From assembly GCA_015654575.1 (NCBI GenBank), contig JAATGR010000251.1, forward strand, positions 1 through 60,063: a DNA stretch of 60,063 nt, given 5' to 3'. Both the position numbers and the translations under genes were made by a program. Under the pieces are notes generated by a model, which was not told where the DNA came from, searched no databases, and saw only the letters and a list, made by a program, of their open reading frames with translations. This DNA is from Actinomycetales bacterium. GTDB lineage: Bacteria > Actinomycetota > Actinomycetes > Actinomycetales > Microbacteriaceae. Of the stretch, positions 50,953-60,063 are shown one piece after another (position 1 is the first letter of the stretch; each line of letters opens with the position of its first letter).

Positions 50953-53019
50953 TCATGATCCGCCGCGCACCAGTTCCAGGCCCGCGCCGGCGAGCTGGCC
51001 CAGAGTCGCCGTCGGCAGAAACGCACGGGTGAGTGCCAGCCCGATCAGTGGCAAGTCGCTCTCGTCGCGGTAGAGCAGGTAGAGCGTCTCGTAGCGCGGC
51101 TGGAACTTCTGCTTGAACCGGTGCAACGACTGGAAGCCGTACACCGGTTCGAGGGCCTCTGCGAGTTTCGTGCTGAGATCGGCGATGACGCCGGCGCCCG
51201 CCGGGTAGTCGTGTGTGAGCGGCGCGCCGGACAGCGACATGATCTCGGCGCCCTCTTCCGAGAAGGCCTTCGCCGAGGATCCGATGAGGAATTCCATCAC
51301 CGGACCGAACGCCGCCCCGTCACGCCGCCGCATCAGGTCCAGCGTCCATCCCCGGACGATGCCCGCGTCGCCGTAGACCGGCAGCCAGGACAGGAACCCG
51401 TCGATGTCGCCGTTGGGGGCCACCGCCAGCGCGAGTCGGACCTCGGGGCTTTCCGCCTCGACGAGCGTGCCCAAGGTGAAGCCCATCTCCGGCAGTCCCT
51501 TGTCGCCCACCCAGCCGTCCGAGATGGCGCGGAGCTGGGCGCGCACCCCCCAGCTCTCGTCCTTGAGGTGCGTGAGCCGGAACGACTCCTCCTCACGCTC
51601 GGCGCGGTTCAGGGAGGTGCGAACCGGACCCCACGCCTTGCCGGTGAATGCGAGCCCGGGAAGGTCGACGATGGTGTCGTCGGCGACGACGAGGCTGCGC
51701 CACCCCTCCGGTACGGCATCCCGCGTCGTCTCGCCGGCGCTGAAGAAGCACGGCACCAGGCCGACACGTTCGGCGTCGGCGATGAACTCCGCGACGGAGC
51801 CGGCACGGGAGGAGGCCGGTCCCAGCGGGTCGGCGAGTGCGAGTGCGACCCCGGCGCGCCGCTGGTAGGCGACGATTCCGGCAGCGGTGCGGGCGTACTG
51901 GATGCCGTCCCAGGTCGTCATCCACGACAGCGTGCCCCCGCCATGAGCCTGCAGTTCCTGCACGGCGTCCTCGCGGACGGGATCGGGGCTGCCGCCGATG
52001 CGGGCCCGACGATGGGCGCGGAAGGCTTTGCGCACCCACACGAGGTACACCAGCAGCGGAATCCACAGCGCGCCGGTCGCCAGGGTGAGCGAAACGTCGC
52101 CGCCGAGTGCGACCTCGGTGTGCGCGACGCCGATGATCAGCACCAGGAGGGCGAAGAGGATGAAGCTCAGCACGTTGATCGCGGCGAGGACGACTGCGAA
52201 CACCCAGGCCCAGCGCCGGCCACGGCGCAATCCGTTCGCGATCGCCGCGATGACGACCACGTCGATCGCCACGTCCCAGAAGGATCCGGATGCCGGGGCG
52301 GAGGCGCCGAAAGGACCCTGCGTGGGCACGAGGAACACGATCACCCCCATGACCGCCAACACCAGCAGCACGATGAACGCGACCAGGCGCTGCTCGCGCA
52401 CCGTGGTGCGCTGGATGCGCAGCGTCCGGTCGACGCCCAGGACCAGGAGCACCGCGAGCAGGTGCAGCAGGTCGGCGATGTTGCCCCAGAACACCATCGT
52501 CACGAACACGAAGGCGAGCAGGACCAGCCACGCCCGCACCCGCCAGGGCTGCACGAACAGGCTGATCGCCGCCGCGATGCACGCCATCACGCCGCCGGAC
52601 GGTCCGACGTCGAGCATCGATGCTTCCGCCACCGCCCACGGCCAACCGGTCGCGGCCAGCGCCCAGATGAGCGCGGCGGAACCGAGGACGCCGAACAGCT
52701 GGCCCGCGGCGAAGTATCCTAGCGCGAGCCGCGAGCCGCGCCGGAATTCGAGGTAGGCCATCCCGGAAAGGCCCGCCAGCAGCAGCGGATACATCCAGGG
52801 CTGAGCGGCGAAGAGGGTGCCGGTGATCGGAGCCCACCAGTGTCCGGCCTGCAGCGCGGGCAGGCCGTAGGCGAGCGTCTGCCAGGCCGCGCTGTCCGCG
52901 AAGGGCGACCACAGCGCGGCGCTGGCGACGGCCGCGATCAGCAACACGACCACGACGCAGAGGGTGGCCGGTATGCGGCCGACGAACGCGAGCGGGCGGG
53001 GGCGGGCGGCATCCGTCAT
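50953..53019 (-). CDS. MprF-like phosphatidylglycerol lysyltransferase domain protein with rhomboid-like membrane part
   Basis: 688 residues from ATG 53017-53019 (GTG 53026-53028 possible). N-terminal six-helix part resembles rhomboids (GHWWAPITGTLFAAQPW, DVGPSGGVMACIAAA with a serine, NIADLLHLLAVLLVL with a histidine). More helices follow to about 340, then a cytosolic DUF2156/LPG synthase C-terminal domain (RTAAGIVAYQRRAGVALALADPLGP in part, LDLMRRRDGAAFGPVMEFLI, LEPVYGFQSLHRFKQKFQPR). Likely aminoacylates phosphatidylglycerol or another acceptor. Minus-strand, convergent with cspA. Confidence 0.85.
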   Translation of the reverse strand: MTDAARPRPLAFVGRIPATLCVVVVLLIAAVASAALWSPFADSAAWQTLAYGLPALQAGHWWAPITGTLFAAQPWMYPLLLAGLSGMAYLEFRRGSRLALGYFAAGQLFGVLGSAALIWALAATGWPWAVAEASMLDVGPSGGVMACIAAAISLFVQPWRVRAWLVLLAFVFVTMVFWGNIADLLHLLAVLLVLGVDRTLRIQRTTVREQRLVAFIVLLVLAVMGVIVFLVPTQGPFGASAPASGSFWDVAIDVVVIAAIANGLRRGRRWAWVFAVVLAAINVLSFILFALLVLIIGVAHTEVALGGDVSLTLATGALWIPLLVYLVWVRKAFRAHRRARIGGSPDPVREDAVQELQAHGGGTLSWMTTWDGIQYARTAAGIVAYQRRAGVALALADPLGPASSRAGSVAEFIADAERVGLVPCFFSAGETTRDAVPEGWRSLVVADDTIVDLPGLAFTGKAWGPVRTSLNRAEREEESFRLTHLKDESWGVRAQLRAISDGWVGDKGLPEMGFTLGTLVEAESPEVRLALAVAPNGDIDGFLSWLPVYGDAGIVRGWTLDLMRRRDGAAFGPVMEFLIGSSAKAFSEEGAEIMSLSGAPLTHDYPAGAGVIADLSTKLAEALEPVYGFQSLHRFKQKFQPRYETLYLLYRDESDLPLIGLALTRAFLPTATLGQLAGAGLELVRGGS

Positions 53020-53120
53020 GGCGCTCACCCTATCGGGGGCGTCCCACCGCCCGGCGCGTTCCGGGCGCCTCCGCTAGGCAGGAGACCGCGCGTGCGCAGG
53101 ACGATTCCGGGGGGATTCTC

Positions 53121-53964: not shown

Positions 53965-54417
53965 TCAGACGGTGGCGGCGATGTGTTCGTCGACCACGGC
54001 ACGGGCCCACGCGATCCCAAGCTCGCTGGCGTCGTCGAAGCCCGACGCATCATGCCGCCCGTACGTCCCGACGCGGGTCGCGCCGAGTTCCCCGAACAGG
54101 CGATCGATGTGCTCGCTGCCCTGACTGTAGGTCTCGGCGTAGGTCCGGTCGCCGAGACCGAACATCGCGTATCGCAGCTCCGTCAGGTTCGGCCGCGTCG
54201 CTTCCAACCTCTCGAAGAAGGGTCGTGCGCCGGCGGGAAGCTCCCCGTCTCCGTGGCTCGAGCAGATCACGAGATACAGGGCGGACATGTCGAGGTCTGC
54301 GGGGTCAAAGGCGGACATGTCCTCGACCTGGACGGTCTCCCCGAGCGCGTCGGCGATGTCCTCCGCGATCATCTCCGAGTTGCCAGATTCGGTTCCGTAG
54401 AGCGCCACGACAGTCAT
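53965..54417 (-). CDS. Flavodoxin, probable P450 electron carrier (CreF-like)
   Basis: 150 residues. FMN-binding loop YGTESGNSEMIAEDIADAL and the second loop SSHGDGELPAGARPFF, then GLGDRTYAETYSQGS. Single-domain flavodoxin. ATG overlaps the stop of the reductase gene (ATGA), so the pair is translated together and forms an NAD(P)H to flavin to P450 chain. Counterpart of the small electron carrier of CreJEF in C. glutamicum by context. Confidence 0.88.
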   Translation of the reverse strand: MTVVALYGTESGNSEMIAEDIADALGETVQVEDMSAFDPADLDMSALYLVICSSHGDGELPAGARPFFERLEATRPNLTELRYAMFGLGDRTYAETYSQGSEHIDRLFGELGATRVGTYGRHDASGFDDASELGIAWARAVVDEHIAATV

Positions 54418-55667
54418 CGGTCAGTCCTCTCTTGGCCGTGCTGGCCGTGTCGCACCGTGGCTGGGCCGTGGCCCAGGAGTCCCTCCCAGGTGCGTACTTT
54501 TTGCCGGACCCGGCCCGGTCGAGCCAGAGCGACTTCGGCGGTGTCGATCGCCTTCCAGTGTTCGATGCCGACGGCACGGTCCCGGACCGACGGGGGGAGC
54601 CCGGAGAATCCGGGCATCGGTGCTGACGCTGTGTCGAGTCCGGCCCGCACCGCGTCGGCGACGCCCTTCGCGTCCGCGCGGGTCTCAGGGATCGTGCCGG
54701 TGGGGCCGTGTTCGGCCCAGCCGACGGCATGGACGCTCGGATCGGCGACCTCCGCGTAATGCCCGGTGAAGCCGATCGCGGTTACGACCGTCTGCGCCGG
54801 GATCACTCGCTCGCCGGAGGCGTCGCGTACTCGTACCCCCTCCACCCGAGCGTCTCCGAGGATCTCCACGGGGGTCGTCGCGAATTGAAGAGAGATCCTG
54901 ACCCGGGCGGATTCGGGCCGAGTCGCGGCCAGCGTCCGCAATGTCTCGCTCTTGGGATCCGCTGCGGCGGCATTGACGCCGACGACCTCGACGGCGACGC
55001 CGGGCACCTCGGACAGTTCGCGCACCATGGCGCGATCGAAGCGGGCGGTCTCCGCACTGGACCGGGCGACGAGCGTGAGAGAGACGAGTCCCGGCACGAT
55101 GCGCTGGTGCACGTCGTCGTCCATGTCAGAGCCTTCGTAGTGTTCCGGTGCTTTCGCGAGCAGCCGCGCGACATCCACGGCGACGTTTCCGGCTCCGATG
55201 ATCACGATGTCCGAGCCGCACACGAGGGGGACTTCAGCTTCATCCGGGTGTCCGTTGAGGAAGCGGGTCACCGCACCCGCGCCGACCACGCCGGCCAAGC
55301 GAGCGCCGGGAACGTCGAGGATGCGATCCTCGGACATTCCGGTCGCCAGGATCACCGCGTCGAAATTCTCTCGAAGCTCCGCCACCGACAGATCGGTGCC
55401 CAGTGCGACGTTGCCGGCGAAGCGCACCCGCGGAGAGTCGAAGACGCGCTCGAATTGGCGGATGACGGCTTTCGTGCCCTGGTGATCCGCGGCGACGCCG
55501 TAGCGCACCAGACCGAAGGGAACGGGCAGCCGGTCGAACACGGTGACGTGCAGGTCTGGGTCTGCCTTGAGGAGGAACTGGGCGGTGTAGCAGCCGCTCG
55601 GTCCGCTGCCGACGACGGCGATCTGGGCGATGCGGCCGGCGGTGGCTGGTTCGTTCAGGTCGTGCAC
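54414..55667 (-). CDS. creE: FAD-dependent flavodoxin/ferredoxin reductase, FprA type (CreE-like)
   Basis: 417 residues from GTG 55665-55667 with GGGAGG upstream. Adrenodoxin reductase/FprA-like: FAD motif VVGSGPSGCYTAQFL, PVPFGLVRYGVAADH, NADP motif IIGAGNVAVDVARLLAKAPEH, and C-terminal GFTGHYAE with TGTIPETRADAKGV. Transfers electrons from NADPH to the flavodoxin encoded next and so to the P450 at 57492-58763. Divergent from the HD hydrolase gene, with an operator in between. Symbol assigned by analogy with the cre cluster. Confidence 0.85.
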   Translation of the reverse strand: MHDLNEPATAGRIAQIAVVGSGPSGCYTAQFLLKADPDLHVTVFDRLPVPFGLVRYGVAADHQGTKAVIRQFERVFDSPRVRFAGNVALGTDLSVAELRENFDAVILATGMSEDRILDVPGARLAGVVGAGAVTRFLNGHPDEAEVPLVCGSDIVIIGAGNVAVDVARLLAKAPEHYEGSDMDDDVHQRIVPGLVSLTLVARSSAETARFDRAMVRELSEVPGVAVEVVGVNAAAADPKSETLRTLAATRPESARVRISLQFATTPVEILGDARVEGVRVRDASGERVIPAQTVVTAIGFTGHYAEVADPSVHAVGWAEHGPTGTIPETRADAKGVADAVRAGLDTASAPMPGFSGLPPSVRDRAVGIEHWKAIDTAEVALARPGRVRQKVRTWEGLLGHGPATVRHGQHGQERTDR

Positions 55668-55737
55668 ATCGCCTCCCGTCGTCCTTGTCGATGGCGACTC
55701 ATGGTATCGACGACATTCGGCTCTGCGATCGATACAG

Positions 55738-55752
55738 TTTCACTGAGTGGAA
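55738..55752. promoter_or_regulatory. IclR-type operator 1
   Basis: TTTCACTGAGTGGAA is a near-perfect dyad (arms TTTCAC and GTGGAA). It lies between the divergent reductase and HD-hydrolase genes. GTTTCACTGAGTG (55737-55749) recurs exactly, inverted, at 57399-57411. Confidence 0.7.
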
Positions 55753-55837
55753 TCGCGTCGTGGCAGGTTCTCTGGATCTTGCACGGTGGGTAACGAGGGC
55801 GGGCCGCCGGGCGCGTTCCGGAAGGAGCATGACGACG

Positions 55838-56587
55838 ATGTCCGAGATTCCTCTGATCGCCAGCTACTCTGCGGTCAAATTGCATCCGCGCGGGCGGATC
55901 TTCCCCCACGATGTTCTCGATGCGGTACCGAGGGCCGCGCCGGGGGTGATCGACCTCGTCGGGATGGCGCCGCTCCAGCGTGATGGCCGCCCGGTTGATC
56001 TCGCGGGCATGTGGGAGCGCGCGGCGCCCCTTCTTGCCACGCGCGACAACGACGCGCATTCGCTCTACGCGCTGGGGATAGCGGCCGCACTCTCGGCGGA
56101 GTTACCGGAGGCGGATCCGGTCGTGACCCTGCCCGCGATCCTCTTGCACGACATCGGCTGGTCTCGGGTGCCGCCGGACGAGGTGCTGTCGGCCATCGCG
56201 CCCGGCGGTGGACGTCCCGATCTGGTGCGGCTCCACGAGACGGAAGGTGCCCGCCTGGCCCGTGAGATCCTCCGGGGAGTGGGACACGATGTGGACGCGA
56301 CCGACCGGATCGTGGAGATCATCGACGGTCACGACAGTCGCAGGTACACGCTCTCGATCGAGGACGCCATCGTCAAAGACGCCGACAAGACCTGGCGGGT
56401 CACCCCGCACGGCCTCGACGTCGTCATGGAGTGGTTCGGGCTCGGCAGGGCCGAAGCCCTCCGCCTGTGTGCATCTCGGGTTGTGGATCAGCTGTTCACG
56501 GATCCGGCGCGCGCGCTGGCCCGAGGTCTCATCGCGATGGGATCCGTGACCCTGTGGCCGCAGTCCGCGGCCCTCGCCGACGGCTGA
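55838..56587 (+). CDS. creD: HD-domain phosphohydrolase (CreD-like)
   Basis: 249 residues from ATG 55838-55840, with AAGGAG ten bases upstream; an ATG three codons earlier is too close to it. Metal ligands of the HD fold are visible: H74, H104-D105 in LLHDIGWS, H133, H165-D166 in IDGHDSRRY and D181 in IVKDADKTW. In the cre pathway CreD removes phosphate from the oxidised aryl phosphate. Location between the redox partners and the P450 supports that role. The equivalence is by context; the HD family alone does not prove substrate. Confidence 0.78.
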   Translation: MSEIPLIASYSAVKLHPRGRIFPHDVLDAVPRAAPGVIDLVGMAPLQRDGRPVDLAGMWERAAPLLATRDNDAHSLYALGIAAALSAELPEADPVVTLPAILLHDIGWSRVPPDEVLSAIAPGGGRPDLVRLHETEGARLAREILRGVGHDVDATDRIVEIIDGHDSRRYTLSIEDAIVKDADKTWRVTPHGLDVVMEWFGLGRAEALRLCASRVVDQLFTDPARALARGLIAMGSVTLWPQSAALADG

Positions 56588-56593
56588 CGGCCG

Positions 56594-57391
56594 GTGTCCG
56601 GGCGCAACAGCGACGGCACCGGGGTGATCGAGCGGGTGATGCTCATCCTGGAGGCGCTCGAGCGCGCGCCGGCGCCGCAGACGCTCACGGAATTGTGCGC
56701 CACGACCGGGCTTCGCAAACCCACGATGCACCGTCTCCTGAACGGCCTGGTGGACGGGGGTCTGCTGACGCGCACGGTCGACGGCGCCTATGCCCTGGGA
56801 ATTCGGCTCTGGGAGATCGCGCAGAACGCGGGACGACAGCTCCGCGACGCCGCGCGCCCGTTCCTGCAGGACATGTTCTCGCTCGTCGGCGAGACCACCC
56901 ATCTCGCCGTCCGCGAGGGCGATGAAGTGCTCTATATCGAGCGGATCTACGGCAGTCGTCGGGTGCCGCGTGCGTCTCGCGTCGGCGGGCGTCTGCCCAT
57001 GCACGCAACGGCCGTCGGCAAGGCCATCCTCGCGTTCGAGGAGGACTGGGTGCGCGAAGCCTATCTCGGCCGCGAAGGCATGGAACGGGCGACGGCGCAC
57101 ACGGTCGTCGATCGCATGGCGCTGCGACGCGAACTCGACGAGGCGAGGCGTCGCGGTTTCGCCACCACCCGGGAGGAGGTGCGGGTCGGCTCGTGCTCGA
57201 TCGCGGTACCCGTCCTCCAGGCGTCGCGCGTCGTCGCTGCGGTGGGCCTCGTCGTCGGCCCTGAGCGGGCCGAGACGATGGCCAACCTGGTGCCGGCGCT
57301 GCAGGGAACCTCCCGACGGATCGCGAAGGCGACCGCGCACTTCCCCTGGGAGACCCTTCTCCAGGCCGGGTTGTCCACTCCGCGCAGATGA
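56594..57391 (+). CDS. IclR-family transcriptional regulator
   Basis: 265 residues from GTG 56594, 6 bp after the HD gene. N-terminal winged HTH (LTELCATTGLRKPTMHRLLN) and C-terminal IclR effector domain (LPMHATAVGKAILAF, TREEVRVGSCSIAVPVL). IclR proteins commonly govern aromatic catabolism. Two inverted operator copies flank the region at 55738 and 57396, so it probably controls both the reductase/HD promoters and the P450 promoter. Confidence 0.93.
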   Translation: MSGRNSDGTGVIERVMLILEALERAPAPQTLTELCATTGLRKPTMHRLLNGLVDGGLLTRTVDGAYALGIRLWEIAQNAGRQLRDAARPFLQDMFSLVGETTHLAVREGDEVLYIERIYGSRRVPRASRVGGRLPMHATAVGKAILAFEEDWVREAYLGREGMERATAHTVVDRMALRRELDEARRRGFATTREEVRVGSCSIAVPVLQASRVVAAVGLVVGPERAETMANLVPALQGTSRRIAKATAHFPWETLLQAGLSTPRR

Positions 57392-57395
57392 CCGA

Positions 57396-57410
57396 TCTCA
57401 CTCAGTGAAA
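57396..57410. promoter_or_regulatory. IclR-type operator 2
   Basis: TCTCACTCAGTGAAA, the inverse of operator 1 (CACTCAGTGAAAC at 57399-57411 is the exact reverse complement of 55737-55749). It lies just after the IclR stop and about 85 bp before the P450 gene. Confidence 0.7.
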
Positions 57411-57491
57411 CCATCGCCGTCGCCGTAGGGAGGGGCTTCTATCGTGAGGGCACGTTCTTCGCAGCAGGAGAAATTCGAGCAAAGGAGCACG

Positions 57492-58763
57492 ATGACTACC
57501 GCCGACACACGTACCGGCCGATGCCCCGTCATTCACGGCAGTGGTGACGACTACGGGTACGAACCATTCCAGATGAAGGATCCGTTCCCGGCGTACGCGC
57601 GTCTGCGGGACGAGGCCCCTGTCGTGTTCGACGAGCGCATCGGCTACTACGTCGTGACGCGCTACGACGAGATCAAGGCGATCTTCGCCGACCACCAGAC
57701 GTTCTCCAGTGAGAACACCGCTGCTCCCGTTCGTCCGTACGGGCCGCCCGCGAAGCAGATCATGCTCGATGGCGGATTCTCGGTGTACTCCGGACTGAGC
57801 TCCCGTCAGGCGCCCGAGCACACGAGGATCCGGGCCGCGGTGCAGAAGGGATTCACTCCTCGGCGGCTCCGGCTGCTGGAGCCGCCGATCCGTGAGCGCG
57901 TGACTGAGCTCCTGGATCGGATGCTGGAGGCGCCGGACGCTCGCGGCGAGGTGGTTCGTGCGATCGCGTACGACCTGCCGACGGAGACGATCCTGAAGCT
58001 CATCGGCGTGGACCCGGCCATGGTCCCCACGTTCAAGCGATGGAGCGATTCCCGTGCGGCGATTACATGGGGCGATCTCGACGATCAGCAGCAGATCGTG
58101 CACGCTCACAACCTCGTCGACTACTGGCAGGAGTGTCAGAACGTCGTCGCCCGCTATAAGGAGGAACCGGGGGAGAACCTTACGAGCGATCTGCTGCGGG
58201 CACAGGCAGAGGGAGACCCGATCACCGACCACGAGATCGCGTCCGTGCTCTACAGCCTCCTGTTCGCCGGGCATGAGACGACCACGACGCTGATCGCCAA
58301 CACGCTGCGAGTCCTCCTGCCCAATCGGCAGCAGTGGGCCGGCCTGGTCGCCGATCCTTCGGGCATCCCCGCCGCCGTGGAAGAAGTGCTGCGCTACTCG
58401 GGATCGATCGTCGCCTGGCGCCGGCGGGCGACCATCGAGACCGAGATTGGCGGCGTGTCGATCCCCAAGGGCGCTGACATCCTGCTCGTCATGGGTTCGG
58501 CCAACCGCGACCCATCGCGCTTCGATCACGCCGACGACTTCGACGTGGCGCGCCCGAATGTCAGGGAGCACCTCTCGTTCGGGTTCGGCATCCACACCTG
58601 CATCGGCGCACCGTTGGCCCGCATGCAGGTCAAGATCGTCCTCGAGGAGCTCGTCCGCCGGGTCCCGCAACTGCGCGCGGTGGATCCAGAGTCGGTGGAG
58701 TTCCGCGAGAACCTCTCGTTCCGGGTCCCGACGGCTGTTCCCGTGGCGTGGAACGAGGCCTGA
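57492..58763 (+). CDS. creJ: Cytochrome P450 (CreJ-like aryl phosphate oxidase)
   Basis: 423 residues from ATG 57492 with AAAGGAG upstream. Soluble bacterial P450: I-helix AGHETTTT at 259-266, ExxR E298-R301, heme motif FGFGIHTCIG with ligand C370, then PLARMQVKIVLEELV. In C. glutamicum CreJ oxidises the methyl group of 4-methylphenyl phosphate. The assignment here rests on the neighbouring PPDK-type kinase genes, HD phosphohydrolase and dedicated redox pair. Other alkylphenols, or a different phosphorylated aromatic, could be the substrate. Confidence 0.85.
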   Translation: MTTADTRTGRCPVIHGSGDDYGYEPFQMKDPFPAYARLRDEAPVVFDERIGYYVVTRYDEIKAIFADHQTFSSENTAAPVRPYGPPAKQIMLDGGFSVYSGLSSRQAPEHTRIRAAVQKGFTPRRLRLLEPPIRERVTELLDRMLEAPDARGEVVRAIAYDLPTETILKLIGVDPAMVPTFKRWSDSRAAITWGDLDDQQQIVHAHNLVDYWQECQNVVARYKEEPGENLTSDLLRAQAEGDPITDHEIASVLYSLLFAGHETTTTLIANTLRVLLPNRQQWAGLVADPSGIPAAVEEVLRYSGSIVAWRRRATIETEIGGVSIPKGADILLVMGSANRDPSRFDHADDFDVARPNVREHLSFGFGIHTCIGAPLARMQVKIVLEELVRRVPQLRAVDPESVEFRENLSFRVPTAVPVAWNEA

Positions 58764-58764
58764 C

Positions 58765-59838
58765 ATGCTCTCGCTTATCCACTCCTTCACCGATCTCGCC
58801 GAGGGGGCCGTCGATATCCACGGGGGCAAGGGCGCTTCGCTGATCACCATGACCGGCGCCGGGATGCCGGTCCCACCCGGTTTCGTCATCACGACCGGCG
58901 CGTTCGACGAGTTCCGCGATGCGAGCGGCCTGTCGGCGCTCATCCGTGACGAGCTCACCGCTCTCGACGAAAACGATGTCGTCGCCGTTCACGCTGCGGC
59001 CGCCCGGATTCGAGGCGAACTTGAGGACGCGGCGGTGCCCGATGCTGTCCGCCATCAGTTGACCGACGCTTACGATGCGCTCATGCGACGGATCGGCGCC
59101 GAGATCCCCGTCGCTGTCCGTTCCAGCGCGACCGCCGAGGATCTTCCCGACGCCTCGTTCGCGGGGCAGCAGGACACCTATCTCTGGATCACGGGCATCG
59201 ACGCGGTGAAGGAGCACGTGCGTCGTTGCTGGGCTTCGCTCTACACCCCTCGCGCCATCACCTACCGCCGATCTCACGACATCGACGAGTTCGGGTTGTC
59301 GATGGCCGTCGTCGTGCAGAAGATGGTGAACGCGCGGGTCGCGGGCGTCGCGATGACGCTCGACCCCGCCACCGGCGACCGGTCGAAGGTCGTTATCGAC
59401 GCGTCGTACGGGCTCGGCGAGCTCGTCGTGTCGGGCACGGTCACCCCCGACAACACGGTGCTGGACAAGATCACGCTCGCCGCGGTGAGGCAGCACCTCG
59501 GCGACAAGGCGCGTGAACTGGTCGCCGTCGATGGGCGGAGACTGGAGGAGCGCGATGTCGATGCCGAGCGTCGCAGCGTTCCGTGCCTCGACGATCGCGA
59601 GTTGAAATCCGTCGCTGAACTCGCCAAGCGTGCCGAGCGGCACTATCACGTGCCGCAGGACATCGAGTGGGCAATCGACGCCGACCTGCCCGACGGTGAG
59701 AACGTGCTGCTTCTCCAGGCGCGCCCCGAGACTGTCCACGGAGCGAAGCCGCTGACGGCGAGCGTTCCGCAGCTGTCGGGCGCAGGCGCTTTCTCGCTCG
59801 GCAGCATCACCGCATCCCTCACTCGCGTGTCCGTCTGA
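58765..59838 (+). CDS. creH: PPDK/PEP-synthase-type ATP-grasp subunit (CreH-like)
   Basis: 357 residues from ATG 58765, one base after the P450 stop. It has only the N-terminal nucleotide-binding half of pyruvate phosphate dikinase/PEP synthase: GGKGASLITMT, MPVPPGFVITTGAF, RSSATAEDLPDASFAGQQDT at 119-138 and a C-terminal LLQARPETV. The His and PEP domains of full-length PEP synthase (about 790 residues) are absent, as expected for a two-subunit phenol-phosphorylating enzyme (CreHI; also the phenylphosphate synthase type). Would activate 4-cresol or a related phenol with ATP. Confidence 0.85.
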   Translation: MLSLIHSFTDLAEGAVDIHGGKGASLITMTGAGMPVPPGFVITTGAFDEFRDASGLSALIRDELTALDENDVVAVHAAAARIRGELEDAAVPDAVRHQLTDAYDALMRRIGAEIPVAVRSSATAEDLPDASFAGQQDTYLWITGIDAVKEHVRRCWASLYTPRAITYRRSHDIDEFGLSMAVVVQKMVNARVAGVAMTLDPATGDRSKVVIDASYGLGELVVSGTVTPDNTVLDKITLAAVRQHLGDKARELVAVDGRRLEERDVDAERRSVPCLDDRELKSVAELAKRAERHYHVPQDIEWAIDADLPDGENVLLLQARPETVHGAKPLTASVPQLSGAGAFSLGSITASLTRVSV

Positions 59839-59898
59839 CGGACCCCGACCCGCCCATCGAACCGGCGCGACGATGCGTCGGAGAAACCCGAGGAAGCA

Positions 59899-60063
59899 AT
59901 GTCTCTGCGTTCGTTCCCGAAGCCGTCCGATATCCCCGTCCCGCCGGGGGCGGAGGGATGGGAGAAGATCTACCCTTACTATCTCGCTTTCCAGGACGAT
60001 CAACTCTCGGGCGCCGACGCCAAGTTCTGGTTCTGCGACAGCCAGCACTGGCCGACGGTGTTC
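59899..60063 (+). CDS. creI: Partner subunit of the phenol-phosphorylating enzyme (CreI-like), partial
   Basis: First 55 codons from ATG 59899 (GAGGAAG upstream); the rest lies beyond the window. It reads MSLRSFPKPSDIPVPPGAEG, then WEKIYPYYLAFQDD and FWFCDSQHWPTVF. Position right after the ATP-grasp gene and resemblance to the start of PEP-utilising swivel-domain subunits suggest the catalytic His partner, but the diagnostic His motif is outside the window. Confidence 0.6.
   Translation, partial: MSLRSFPKPSDIPVPPGAEGWEKIYPYYLAFQDDQLSGADAKFWFCDSQHWPTVF

What the first reader, a model, noticed from the sequence alone, without database searches (positions are those of the whole stretch)
53965..60063. 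A cre-type phosphorylation-first alkylphenol pathway in a Microbacteriaceae-like genome
Seen: flavodoxin, FprA-like reductase, HD phosphohydrolase, IclR regulator, P450, a PPDK ATP-grasp half protein and the start of a partner gene, in one compact cluster. Known: in Corynebacterium glutamicum CreHI phosphorylates 4-cresol, CreJEF (P450 plus redox partners) oxidises the methyl group of the phosphate ester, CreD dephosphorylates it, and CreC and CreG are dehydrogenases. The gene content matches almost one to one. Inferred: this organism handles 4-cresol or another phenol as a phosphate ester. Dehydrogenase genes would be expected beyond the window end. The actual substrate may be new.
Basis: partly seen in the sequence, partly recalled or inferred. 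Interest (0 to 1): 0.85.

Follow-up and report, generated by a model that had tools for sequence, protein, structure and literature searches.

The report
Cresol pathway with swapped electron supply
A Microbacterium-like genome carries a gene cluster predicted to degrade 4-cresol-type phenols by first phosphorylating them; the iron-sulfur electron carrier genes that such clusters normally hold are missing from it, and a flavodoxin gene with its reductase gene sits beside it, probably as their replacement.

Summary
53965-60063 encodes a flavodoxin, an FprA/adrenodoxin-reductase-like enzyme, an HD phosphohydrolase, an IclR regulator, a P450 that is 63% identical to its closest solved relative (recalled as C. 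glutamicum CreJ), the ATP-grasp half of a two-component phenol dikinase, and the start of its partner. A second contig of the same genome overlaps the window end (99 of 100 bases). It completes the partner, with its phospho-His domain, and adds a short-chain dehydrogenase, a second HD phosphohydrolase and an aldehyde dehydrogenase.

The match is not one to one. In 61 of 70 cre loci compared, the cluster holds a putidaredoxin-like ferredoxin gene, in 57 with its reductase. The window and two relatives lack both, and only they carry a divergent cindoxin-like flavodoxin plus FprA-like reductase. That reductase family lies beside, or is fused to, a P450 in 26 of 29 other loci examined. A palindrome that recurs in other cre promoters lies between the swapped module and the operon.

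Best reading: a cre-type pathway whose P450 likely draws electrons from a captured flavodoxin module. New variant of a known kind; substrate and electron flow are untested.

The parts
53965..54417 (-). Flavodoxin, 150 aa, cindoxin-like; predicted one-electron carrier to the P450
   Evidence: PF00258 86.9 bits; cindoxin 4oxx is the only solved chain at E<=1e-15 (94.1 bits); next to the cluster in 3 of 70 cre loci
54414..55667 (-). FprA/adrenodoxin-reductase-like FAD enzyme, 417 aa; overlaps the flavodoxin gene by 4 bases; predicted flavodoxin reductase
   Evidence: FprA 1lqt 166.9 bits, adrenodoxin reductase 1cjc 166.1 bits; family next to or fused with P450s
55738..55752 (.). Predicted IclR operator TTTCACTGAGTGGAA in the divergent FprA/HD1 gap; the only match with at most 2 mismatches in the whole window
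55838..56587 (+). HD phosphohydrolase 1 (HD1), 249 aa from the likely ATG; the second, non-CreD-position phosphohydrolase
   Evidence: PF01966; orthologue in 44 of 70 cre loci; metal-binding motif kept; model pLDDT 90.6, nearest solved folds are HD hydrolases but weak (best E 2.6e-3)
56594..57391 (+). IclR-family regulator (PcaR/PcaU/PobR-like)
   Evidence: PF01614 130.7 bits, TIGR02431 139.5 bits, below that family's cut-off
57396..57410 (.). Degenerate copy of the palindrome (TCTCACTCAGTGAAA, 3 mismatches) before the P450 gene
57492..58763 (+). Cytochrome P450, CreJ-like, 423 aa from the likely ATG
   Evidence: 257/406 (63%) identical to 5xjn; 583 bits against 274 for the next distinct solved P450; tree
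58765..59838 (+). CreI-like ATP-grasp half of the two-component dikinase, 357 aa
   Evidence: PF01326 359 bits; the only PPDK_N match in this genome
59899..60063 (+). First 55 codons of the CreH-like substrate/swivel half; completed on contig C203 (L008), 621 aa in all, phospho-His motif MMSHAAIV
   Evidence: mobile domain PF00391 80.4 bits. Beyond the window on C203, in order: short-chain dehydrogenase (CreG-like), HD2 (CreD position), aldehyde dehydrogenase (CreC-like); no ferredoxin or reductase gene between the first two (20-base gap)

Best explanation
This is a cre-type cluster, predicted to degrade a 4-alkylphenol such as 4-cresol as its phosphate ester, in which the ferredoxin and ferredoxin-reductase genes are absent and a divergently transcribed flavodoxin/FprA-like pair likely supplies the P450 with electrons instead. 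Inferred steps: the ATP-grasp half (CreI-like) phosphorylates the swivel histidine of the CreH-like half, which passes the phosphate to the phenol; the CreJ-like P450 oxidises the para-methyl group of the ester; NAD(P)H electrons run through the FprA-like FAD enzyme and the FMN flavodoxin; the HD phosphohydrolase at the CreD position removes the phosphate; the short-chain and aldehyde dehydrogenases finish to 4-hydroxybenzoate, which a PobA-like enzyme and PcaGH take on. The IclR protein likely binds a palindrome in both the flavodoxin/HD1 gap and the P450 promoter. Shown: gene content, order, the missing and added genes, their family links and the recurring palindrome. Not shown: any activity, the substrate, the electron path, regulator binding.
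For: P450: 63% to 5xjn, far above all other solved P450s; sits inside the actinobacterial cre group of a tree of 72 rows. Kinase: PPDK_N and PEP-utiliser halves, Ser-His motif as stated for CreH. Order on window plus C203 equals the reverse of creC-D-E-F-G-H-I-J in C. glutamicum (table seen in PMC7764795) minus E and F. Swap: 3 of 70 loci carry Fld+FprA next to the cluster, and those 3 lack the Fdx and FdR genes; Fdx in 61, FdR in 58 of 70; no cre-type ferredoxin anywhere in G000, G140 or G200 at E<=1e-3, against 3e-36 and 7e-38 in the controls G018 and G255. Module: flavodoxin nearest to cindoxin; FprA-family gene has a flavodoxin beside or fused in 29 of 29 loci and a P450 in 26 of 29. Regulation: palindrome in 24 of 51 IclR-P450 gaps, 22 of 48 without the three loci it was read from, against 2 hits in 561,232 control bases. 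Downstream: PcaH 338 bits over its cut-off with PcaG beside it.
Against: No expression or activity data. PobA-like hit (354 bits) is under the family cut-off, as in all 9 genomes tested. Other putidaredoxin-reductase-like genes exist in G000 (33%) and G200 (32%), so a partner encoded elsewhere is not excluded; the genome is 82% complete. The P450 shows no faster change on its stem than the other cluster proteins, so there is no rate signal of adaptation to a new partner. The window's own second palindrome has 3 mismatches. Only CreJ of C. glutamicum was compared by sequence, and its identity as 5xjn is recalled.
Confidence: 0.8

Rival explanations
1. The pathway works on a phenol other than 4-cresol (for example a longer or substituted 4-alkylphenol), and the change of P450 reflects a change of substrate more than of redox partner.
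For: Six of the 20 positions that are conserved in 164 other actinobacterial P450 rows but changed in the window's group lie in residues 88-125 (439-aa reading), the B-C region, a substrate-recognition region in P450s (recalled); hypergeometric p 0.034, region chosen after seeing the data.
Against: Nine polar positions shared by the cre-linked P450s and rare in 26 non-cre ones are kept in the window's P450; cluster order is unchanged; no substrate evidence of any kind.
Confidence: 0.35
2. The flavodoxin/FprA-like pair serves another enzyme, and the P450 uses a reductase and ferredoxin encoded elsewhere in the genome.
For: Putidaredoxin-reductase-like genes occur elsewhere in G000 and G200 (32-33%); the genome is incomplete.
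Against: No cre-type ferredoxin in the three genomes; pair next to the cluster in all three and in none of the 67 others; its family is P450-linked; the conserved palindrome lies in the gap it shares with the operon.
Confidence: 0.1
3. A plain copy of the C. glutamicum cre cluster, with the flavodoxin and FprA-like enzyme as ordinary CreF and CreE.
For: All other functions are present in the same order.
Against: In the compared loci the proteins at the CreF and CreE positions are putidaredoxin-like and putidaredoxin-reductase-like, unrelated in family to flavodoxin and FprA, and they lie at another place in the cluster.
Confidence: 0.05

Closest known systems
4-cresol (cre) pathway of Corynebacterium glutamicum, creCDEFGHIJ (Du et al. 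2016, Li et al. 2014: not read; seen through passages of PMC7764795, PMC12167813, PMC9618137)
   Same: P450 of the CreJ group, two-component dikinase, HD phosphohydrolase at the CreD position, short-chain and aldehyde dehydrogenase, same order
   Different: CreE and CreF genes absent; flavodoxin and FprA-like reductase on the opposite strand; a second HD phosphohydrolase
P450cin / cindoxin / cindoxin reductase (passage of PMC9687028)
   Same: [quoted passage not shown] the window flavodoxin's nearest solved relative is cindoxin
   Different: Other P450 family and pathway; cindoxin reductase is described there as ferredoxin-reductase-like, whereas the window enzyme is FprA/adrenodoxin-reductase-like
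XplA/XplB of Rhodococcus rhodochrous 11Y (passages of PMC8081977)
   Same: Flavodoxin plus dedicated flavodoxin reductase feeding a P450; the XplB family as adrenodoxin-reductase-like is recalled
   Different: Flavodoxin fused to the P450; unrelated substrate
HpeHI kinase of the hydroxyphenylethanone pathway (passages of PMC12167813 and PMC9618137)
   Same: Two-component phenol dikinase of the same build
   Different: Followed by a carboxylase and a NagD-type phosphatase, not by a P450 and HD phosphohydrolases

Membership tests
cre-type 4-cresol pathway | Two-component ATP-dependent phenol dikinase with phospho-His swivel half | tested here: met
   PPDK_N half, PEP-utiliser mobile domain on C203, MMSHAAIV motif
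cre-type 4-cresol pathway | P450 of the CreJ group | tested here: met
   63% identity; nests with P450s next to cre kinases
cre-type 4-cresol pathway | CreE/CreF-type redox partners (putidaredoxin-reductase-like enzyme and [2Fe-2S] ferredoxin) | tested here: not met
   Absent from the cluster and no cre-type ferredoxin in the genome; distant reductases only
cre-type 4-cresol pathway | HD phosphohydrolase at the CreD position | tested here: met
   HD2 on C203 between short-chain and aldehyde dehydrogenase, PF01966 39.4 bits; in 67 of 70 loci; not aligned with CreD itself
cre-type 4-cresol pathway | Alcohol and aldehyde dehydrogenases | tested here: met
   adh_short 177 bits and Aldedh 498 bits on C203
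cre-type 4-cresol pathway | Activity on 4-cresol and its phosphate ester | not testable with these tools
   Needs enzyme assays
Flavodoxin-driven P450 systems (cindoxin/P450cin kind) | Dedicated flavodoxin and reductase encoded with the P450 | tested here: met
   Divergent pair with shared gap and palindrome; cindoxin as nearest solved relative
Flavodoxin-driven P450 systems (cindoxin/P450cin kind) | Flavodoxin shown to reduce the P450 | not testable with these tools
   Needs reconstitution
FprA/adrenodoxin reductase family | Arginine pair that binds the NADPH 2'-phosphate (recalled) | tested here: inconclusive
   In the alignment to 1lqt and 1cjc the GRRGP stretch reads ARSSA: one arginine kept, coenzyme preference open

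The most novel reading that the evidence does not exclude
One lineage of Microbacterium rewired a phosphorylation-first alkylphenol pathway from iron-sulfur to flavin electron transfer: a P450-dedicated flavodoxin/FprA module of the family otherwise fused to P450s in Microbacteriaceae was captured under the cre operator, the ferredoxin pair was lost without trace, and the P450's heme-ligand loop (conserved HYCLGN changed to HTCIGA) and substrate region changed with it, giving an iron-sparing oxidase for a phosphorylated phenol that may differ from 4-cresol.
Probability: 0.35. Interest if true: 0.62.

Novelty: new variant of a known kind. Interest (0 to 1): 0.5.

Why it matters
If true, it is a natural replacement of a P450's redox partners inside an otherwise conserved catabolic operon, with close relatives of both kinds in one genus (3 flavodoxin-type and 14 ferredoxin-type among the 17 of 366 same-genus genomes that carry the P450). 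That gives matched pairs for asking which P450 residues set partner choice, and a ready flavodoxin-driven oxidase for phosphorylated alkylphenols. It also points to a second, unassigned HD phosphohydrolase in cre clusters and to a predicted cre operator.

Tried and rejected
Plain cre reading with flavodoxin as CreF: rejected on family and position. P450-specific acceleration after the swap: tested on 36 loci with FastTree and not found; stem share of total tree length 0.048 for the P450 against 0.027-0.047 for six other cluster proteins. HD protein of the window as CreD: set aside, because the second HD protein holds the CreD position in 67 of 70 loci, while HD1 is seen in 44; some loci end too early to show it. 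Kinase clades against HpeHI and PpsAB: not tested, sequences not at hand. C. glutamicum cluster by sequence: sought and not found. Hydroxyphenylethanone pathway: set aside, since no carboxylase lies in the cluster. Structure of HD1: good model but no PDB match at E<=0.001.

Weak points of my own tests: in the P450 tree, six database rows (P0002-P0007) were labelled flavodoxin-type by me before the test; for three of them (P0002, P0004, P0007) the longest-contig length equals that of an FprA relative, for the other three nothing shows the partner. Four of 70 loci (L022, L034, L035, L045) were dropped from that tree for odd reading-frame length. Signature regions and their p-values were chosen after seeing the positions. 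The 164 comparison rows include database proteins whose neighbours were not seen.
Full report
What is there. The window is one whole contig (G000:C269) of a draft genome, 81.6% complete, 273 contigs. Its last 6.1 kb holds, on the minus strand, a flavodoxin (53965-54417) overlapped by 4 bases by an FprA-like reductase (54414-55667), and, divergently on the plus strand, an HD phosphohydrolase (HD1, likely start 55838), an IclR regulator, a P450 (likely start 57492), a PPDK-type ATP-grasp protein and the first 55 codons of its partner. The genome searches call genomes with close P450s 'same genus'; named database relatives of the P450 at 82-88% identity include Microbacterium sp., so the source is Microbacterium-like (inference).

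Beyond the window. Searching the same genome for the partner family (NF006150) gave the missing part at the end of contig C203 (1102 bits). Reversed, C203 overlaps the window's last 100 bases with one mismatch. It completes a 621-aa protein with the PEP-utiliser mobile domain (80.4 bits) and the motif MMSHAAIV, followed by a short-chain dehydrogenase, a second HD protein (HD2) and an aldehyde dehydrogenase. L105 and L106, from two other same-genus genomes, show the same order, each on one contig.

Naming. Passages of PMC12167813 state that HpeI is the ATP-grasp part and HpeH the swivel and substrate part, and that CreH has a serine before the catalytic histidine. So 58765-59838 is CreI-like and 59899 onward CreH-like; my scripts carry the opposite labels. 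A table in PMC7764795 lists cg0637 creC, cg0638 creD (phosphohydrolase), cg0639 creE, cg0640 creF, cg0641 creG, cg0642 creH, cg0644 creI, cg0645 creJ. The original cre papers were not held (a DOI that I recalled) and were not read.

The P450. The best solved matches are 5xjn/7ccf and 5gwe (583 and 579 bits; the next distinct chain has 274); I recall these as CreJ, and the C. crudilactis relative P0081 is 89% identical to 5xjn. Identity is 257/406. In a maximum-likelihood tree of 72 rows the window's group is one branch (100/100) inside the actinobacterial rows whose clusters carry ferredoxin (labelling limits are told under Tried and rejected).

Comparison of clusters. Of these 96 plus the joined window, 70 have a P450 hit together with a kinase-half hit. 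The actinobacterial order is P450, CreI, CreH, short-chain dehydrogenase, ferredoxin, reductase, HD2, aldehyde dehydrogenase: the reverse of creC-J. Ferredoxin is found in 61 of 70, reductase in 58, both in 57, HD2 in 67, HD1 in 44. The nine without a ferredoxin hit are the window, L105, L106; L038, L040 and L053, cut by contig ends; L041, which has only P450 and kinase; and the distant L054 and L059. The window, L105 and L106 alone carry flavodoxin plus FprA-like reductase beside the cluster; one further locus, L116, has a 34% FprA hit some distance upstream and keeps the ferredoxin pair. In the three, 19-21 bases or so separate the short-chain dehydrogenase from HD2 where the ferredoxin pair lies in the others (20 in the window). 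The compared ferredoxin (L010) is putidaredoxin-like and the reductase rubredoxin-/putidaredoxin-reductase-like.

Is the ferredoxin elsewhere? At E<=1e-3 no match to the cre-type ferredoxin exists in G000, G140 or G200; the controls G018 and G255 gave 3.1e-36 and 7.4e-38. For the reductase, G000 has a 33% and G200 a 32% match, against 52% and 55% at the cre clusters of the controls: distant relatives, not the cre gene.

The new module. The flavodoxin's only solved match at E<=1e-15 is cindoxin, the flavodoxin partner of P450cin (passage of PMC9687028). The reductase is nearest to FprA and adrenodoxin reductase; the GRRGP stretch of those reads ARSSA here, so NADPH preference is open. In 398 genomes drawn from the family, 40 have a match at E<=1e-50; one locus each from 29 of the 39 others was examined. 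All 29 have a flavodoxin hit beside or within the same frame; 24 have a P450 within about 1.5 kb, two more within about 2.4 kb when five misses were widened, and three of one genus have none. In 14 of 29, P450, FprA-like and flavodoxin parts form one open frame. In a tree of 50 FprA rows the cre-linked ones are one branch (100/100), sister to a branch that holds all 14 fusions (95/90).

Regulation. Aligning the FprA/HD1 gap of the three loci showed a shared palindrome, near TTCCACT-N-AGTGGAA. Tested on the other loci with at most 2 mismatches: 24 of 51 IclR-P450 gaps hold it, usually about 90-200 bases before the P450 match; without the three source loci 22 of 48. Of 45 hits in 70 loci, 38 lie within 2.1 kb upstream of the P450. 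The 32 control loci (561,232 bases) gave 2 hits. In the window the only such hit is 55738-55752, between the swapped module and the operon; a 3-mismatch copy lies at 57396. Twenty-seven of 51 gaps have no such site, so the motif is not universal.

Signature residues. Of 217 positions conserved in at least 90% of 164 other actinobacterial rows, 20 are changed in the window's group; 5 lie within 10 residues of the heme cysteine (Cys386 in the 439-aa reading; p 0.016) and 6 in the B-C region (p 0.034), both regions picked after the fact. This is suggestive only; the P450's stem is not longer than that of the other proteins.

Two phosphohydrolases. HD1 and HD2 are 30% identical (69/230) and both keep the metal-binding motif. 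Both occur in Actinomycetota, Alphaproteobacteria and Bacteroidota clusters. A split of labour, for example between early and late phosphate esters, is a guess.

End of the pathway. The genome has PcaH (338 bits, cut-off 296) with a PcaG-like neighbour, and a PobA-like protein (354 bits, under the cut-off of 539, as in all 9 genomes tested), which fits a 4-hydroxybenzoate product.

Novelty. Flavodoxin-driven P450s are known; the cre pathway is known; the replacement of one redox pair by the other in a cre cluster was not described in any title or abstract listed by the searches, which cover open-licence papers only.

Noticed in passing
L157:124-3276 and 13 more of the 29 loci L152-L180: P450, FprA-like reductase and flavodoxin in one open frame of about 1000 aa or more (Pfam p450, Pyr_redox_2 and Flavodoxin_1 in L157), in Microbacteriaceae genomes: a possible self-sufficient P450 layout. 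Searches listed no paper that by title or abstract describes it.
   Followed up: partly
window 55838-56587 and 44 of 70 cre loci: A second HD phosphohydrolase (HD1) recurs in cre clusters of three phyla beside the one at the CreD position; its role is unassigned.
   Followed up: partly
L046, L048, L053 (Bacteroidota); L050-L052, L054, L055, L057-L059, L066, L074 (Alphaproteobacteria): Cre-like clusters outside Actinomycetota with another gene order: P450, kinase halves, HD2, aldehyde dehydrogenase, HD1, short-chain dehydrogenase, then ferredoxin and/or reductase where seen (L053 ends at its contig before HD1).
   Followed up: partly
24 of 51 IclR-P450 gaps; window 55738 and 57396: Palindrome TTCCACT-N-AGTGGAA, a predicted operator of the cre IclR regulator across genera.
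   Followed up: yes
L049 (Klenkia) and L041 (Streptomyces sp. SID13031): L049 has the P450, HD1 and IclR but no kinase hit; L041 has P450 and kinase halves but no dehydrogenase cluster or ferredoxin hit.
   Followed up: no
window 54414-55667, stretch aligned to GRRGP of FprA and adrenodoxin reductase: Reads ARSSA, so one arginine of the recalled NADPH-binding pair is missing; the reductase may accept NADH.
   Followed up: no
window 50953-53028 (-): 691-aa protein with a lysyl-phosphatidylglycerol synthase C-terminal domain (PF09924 201 bits), unrelated to the cluster.
   Followed up: no
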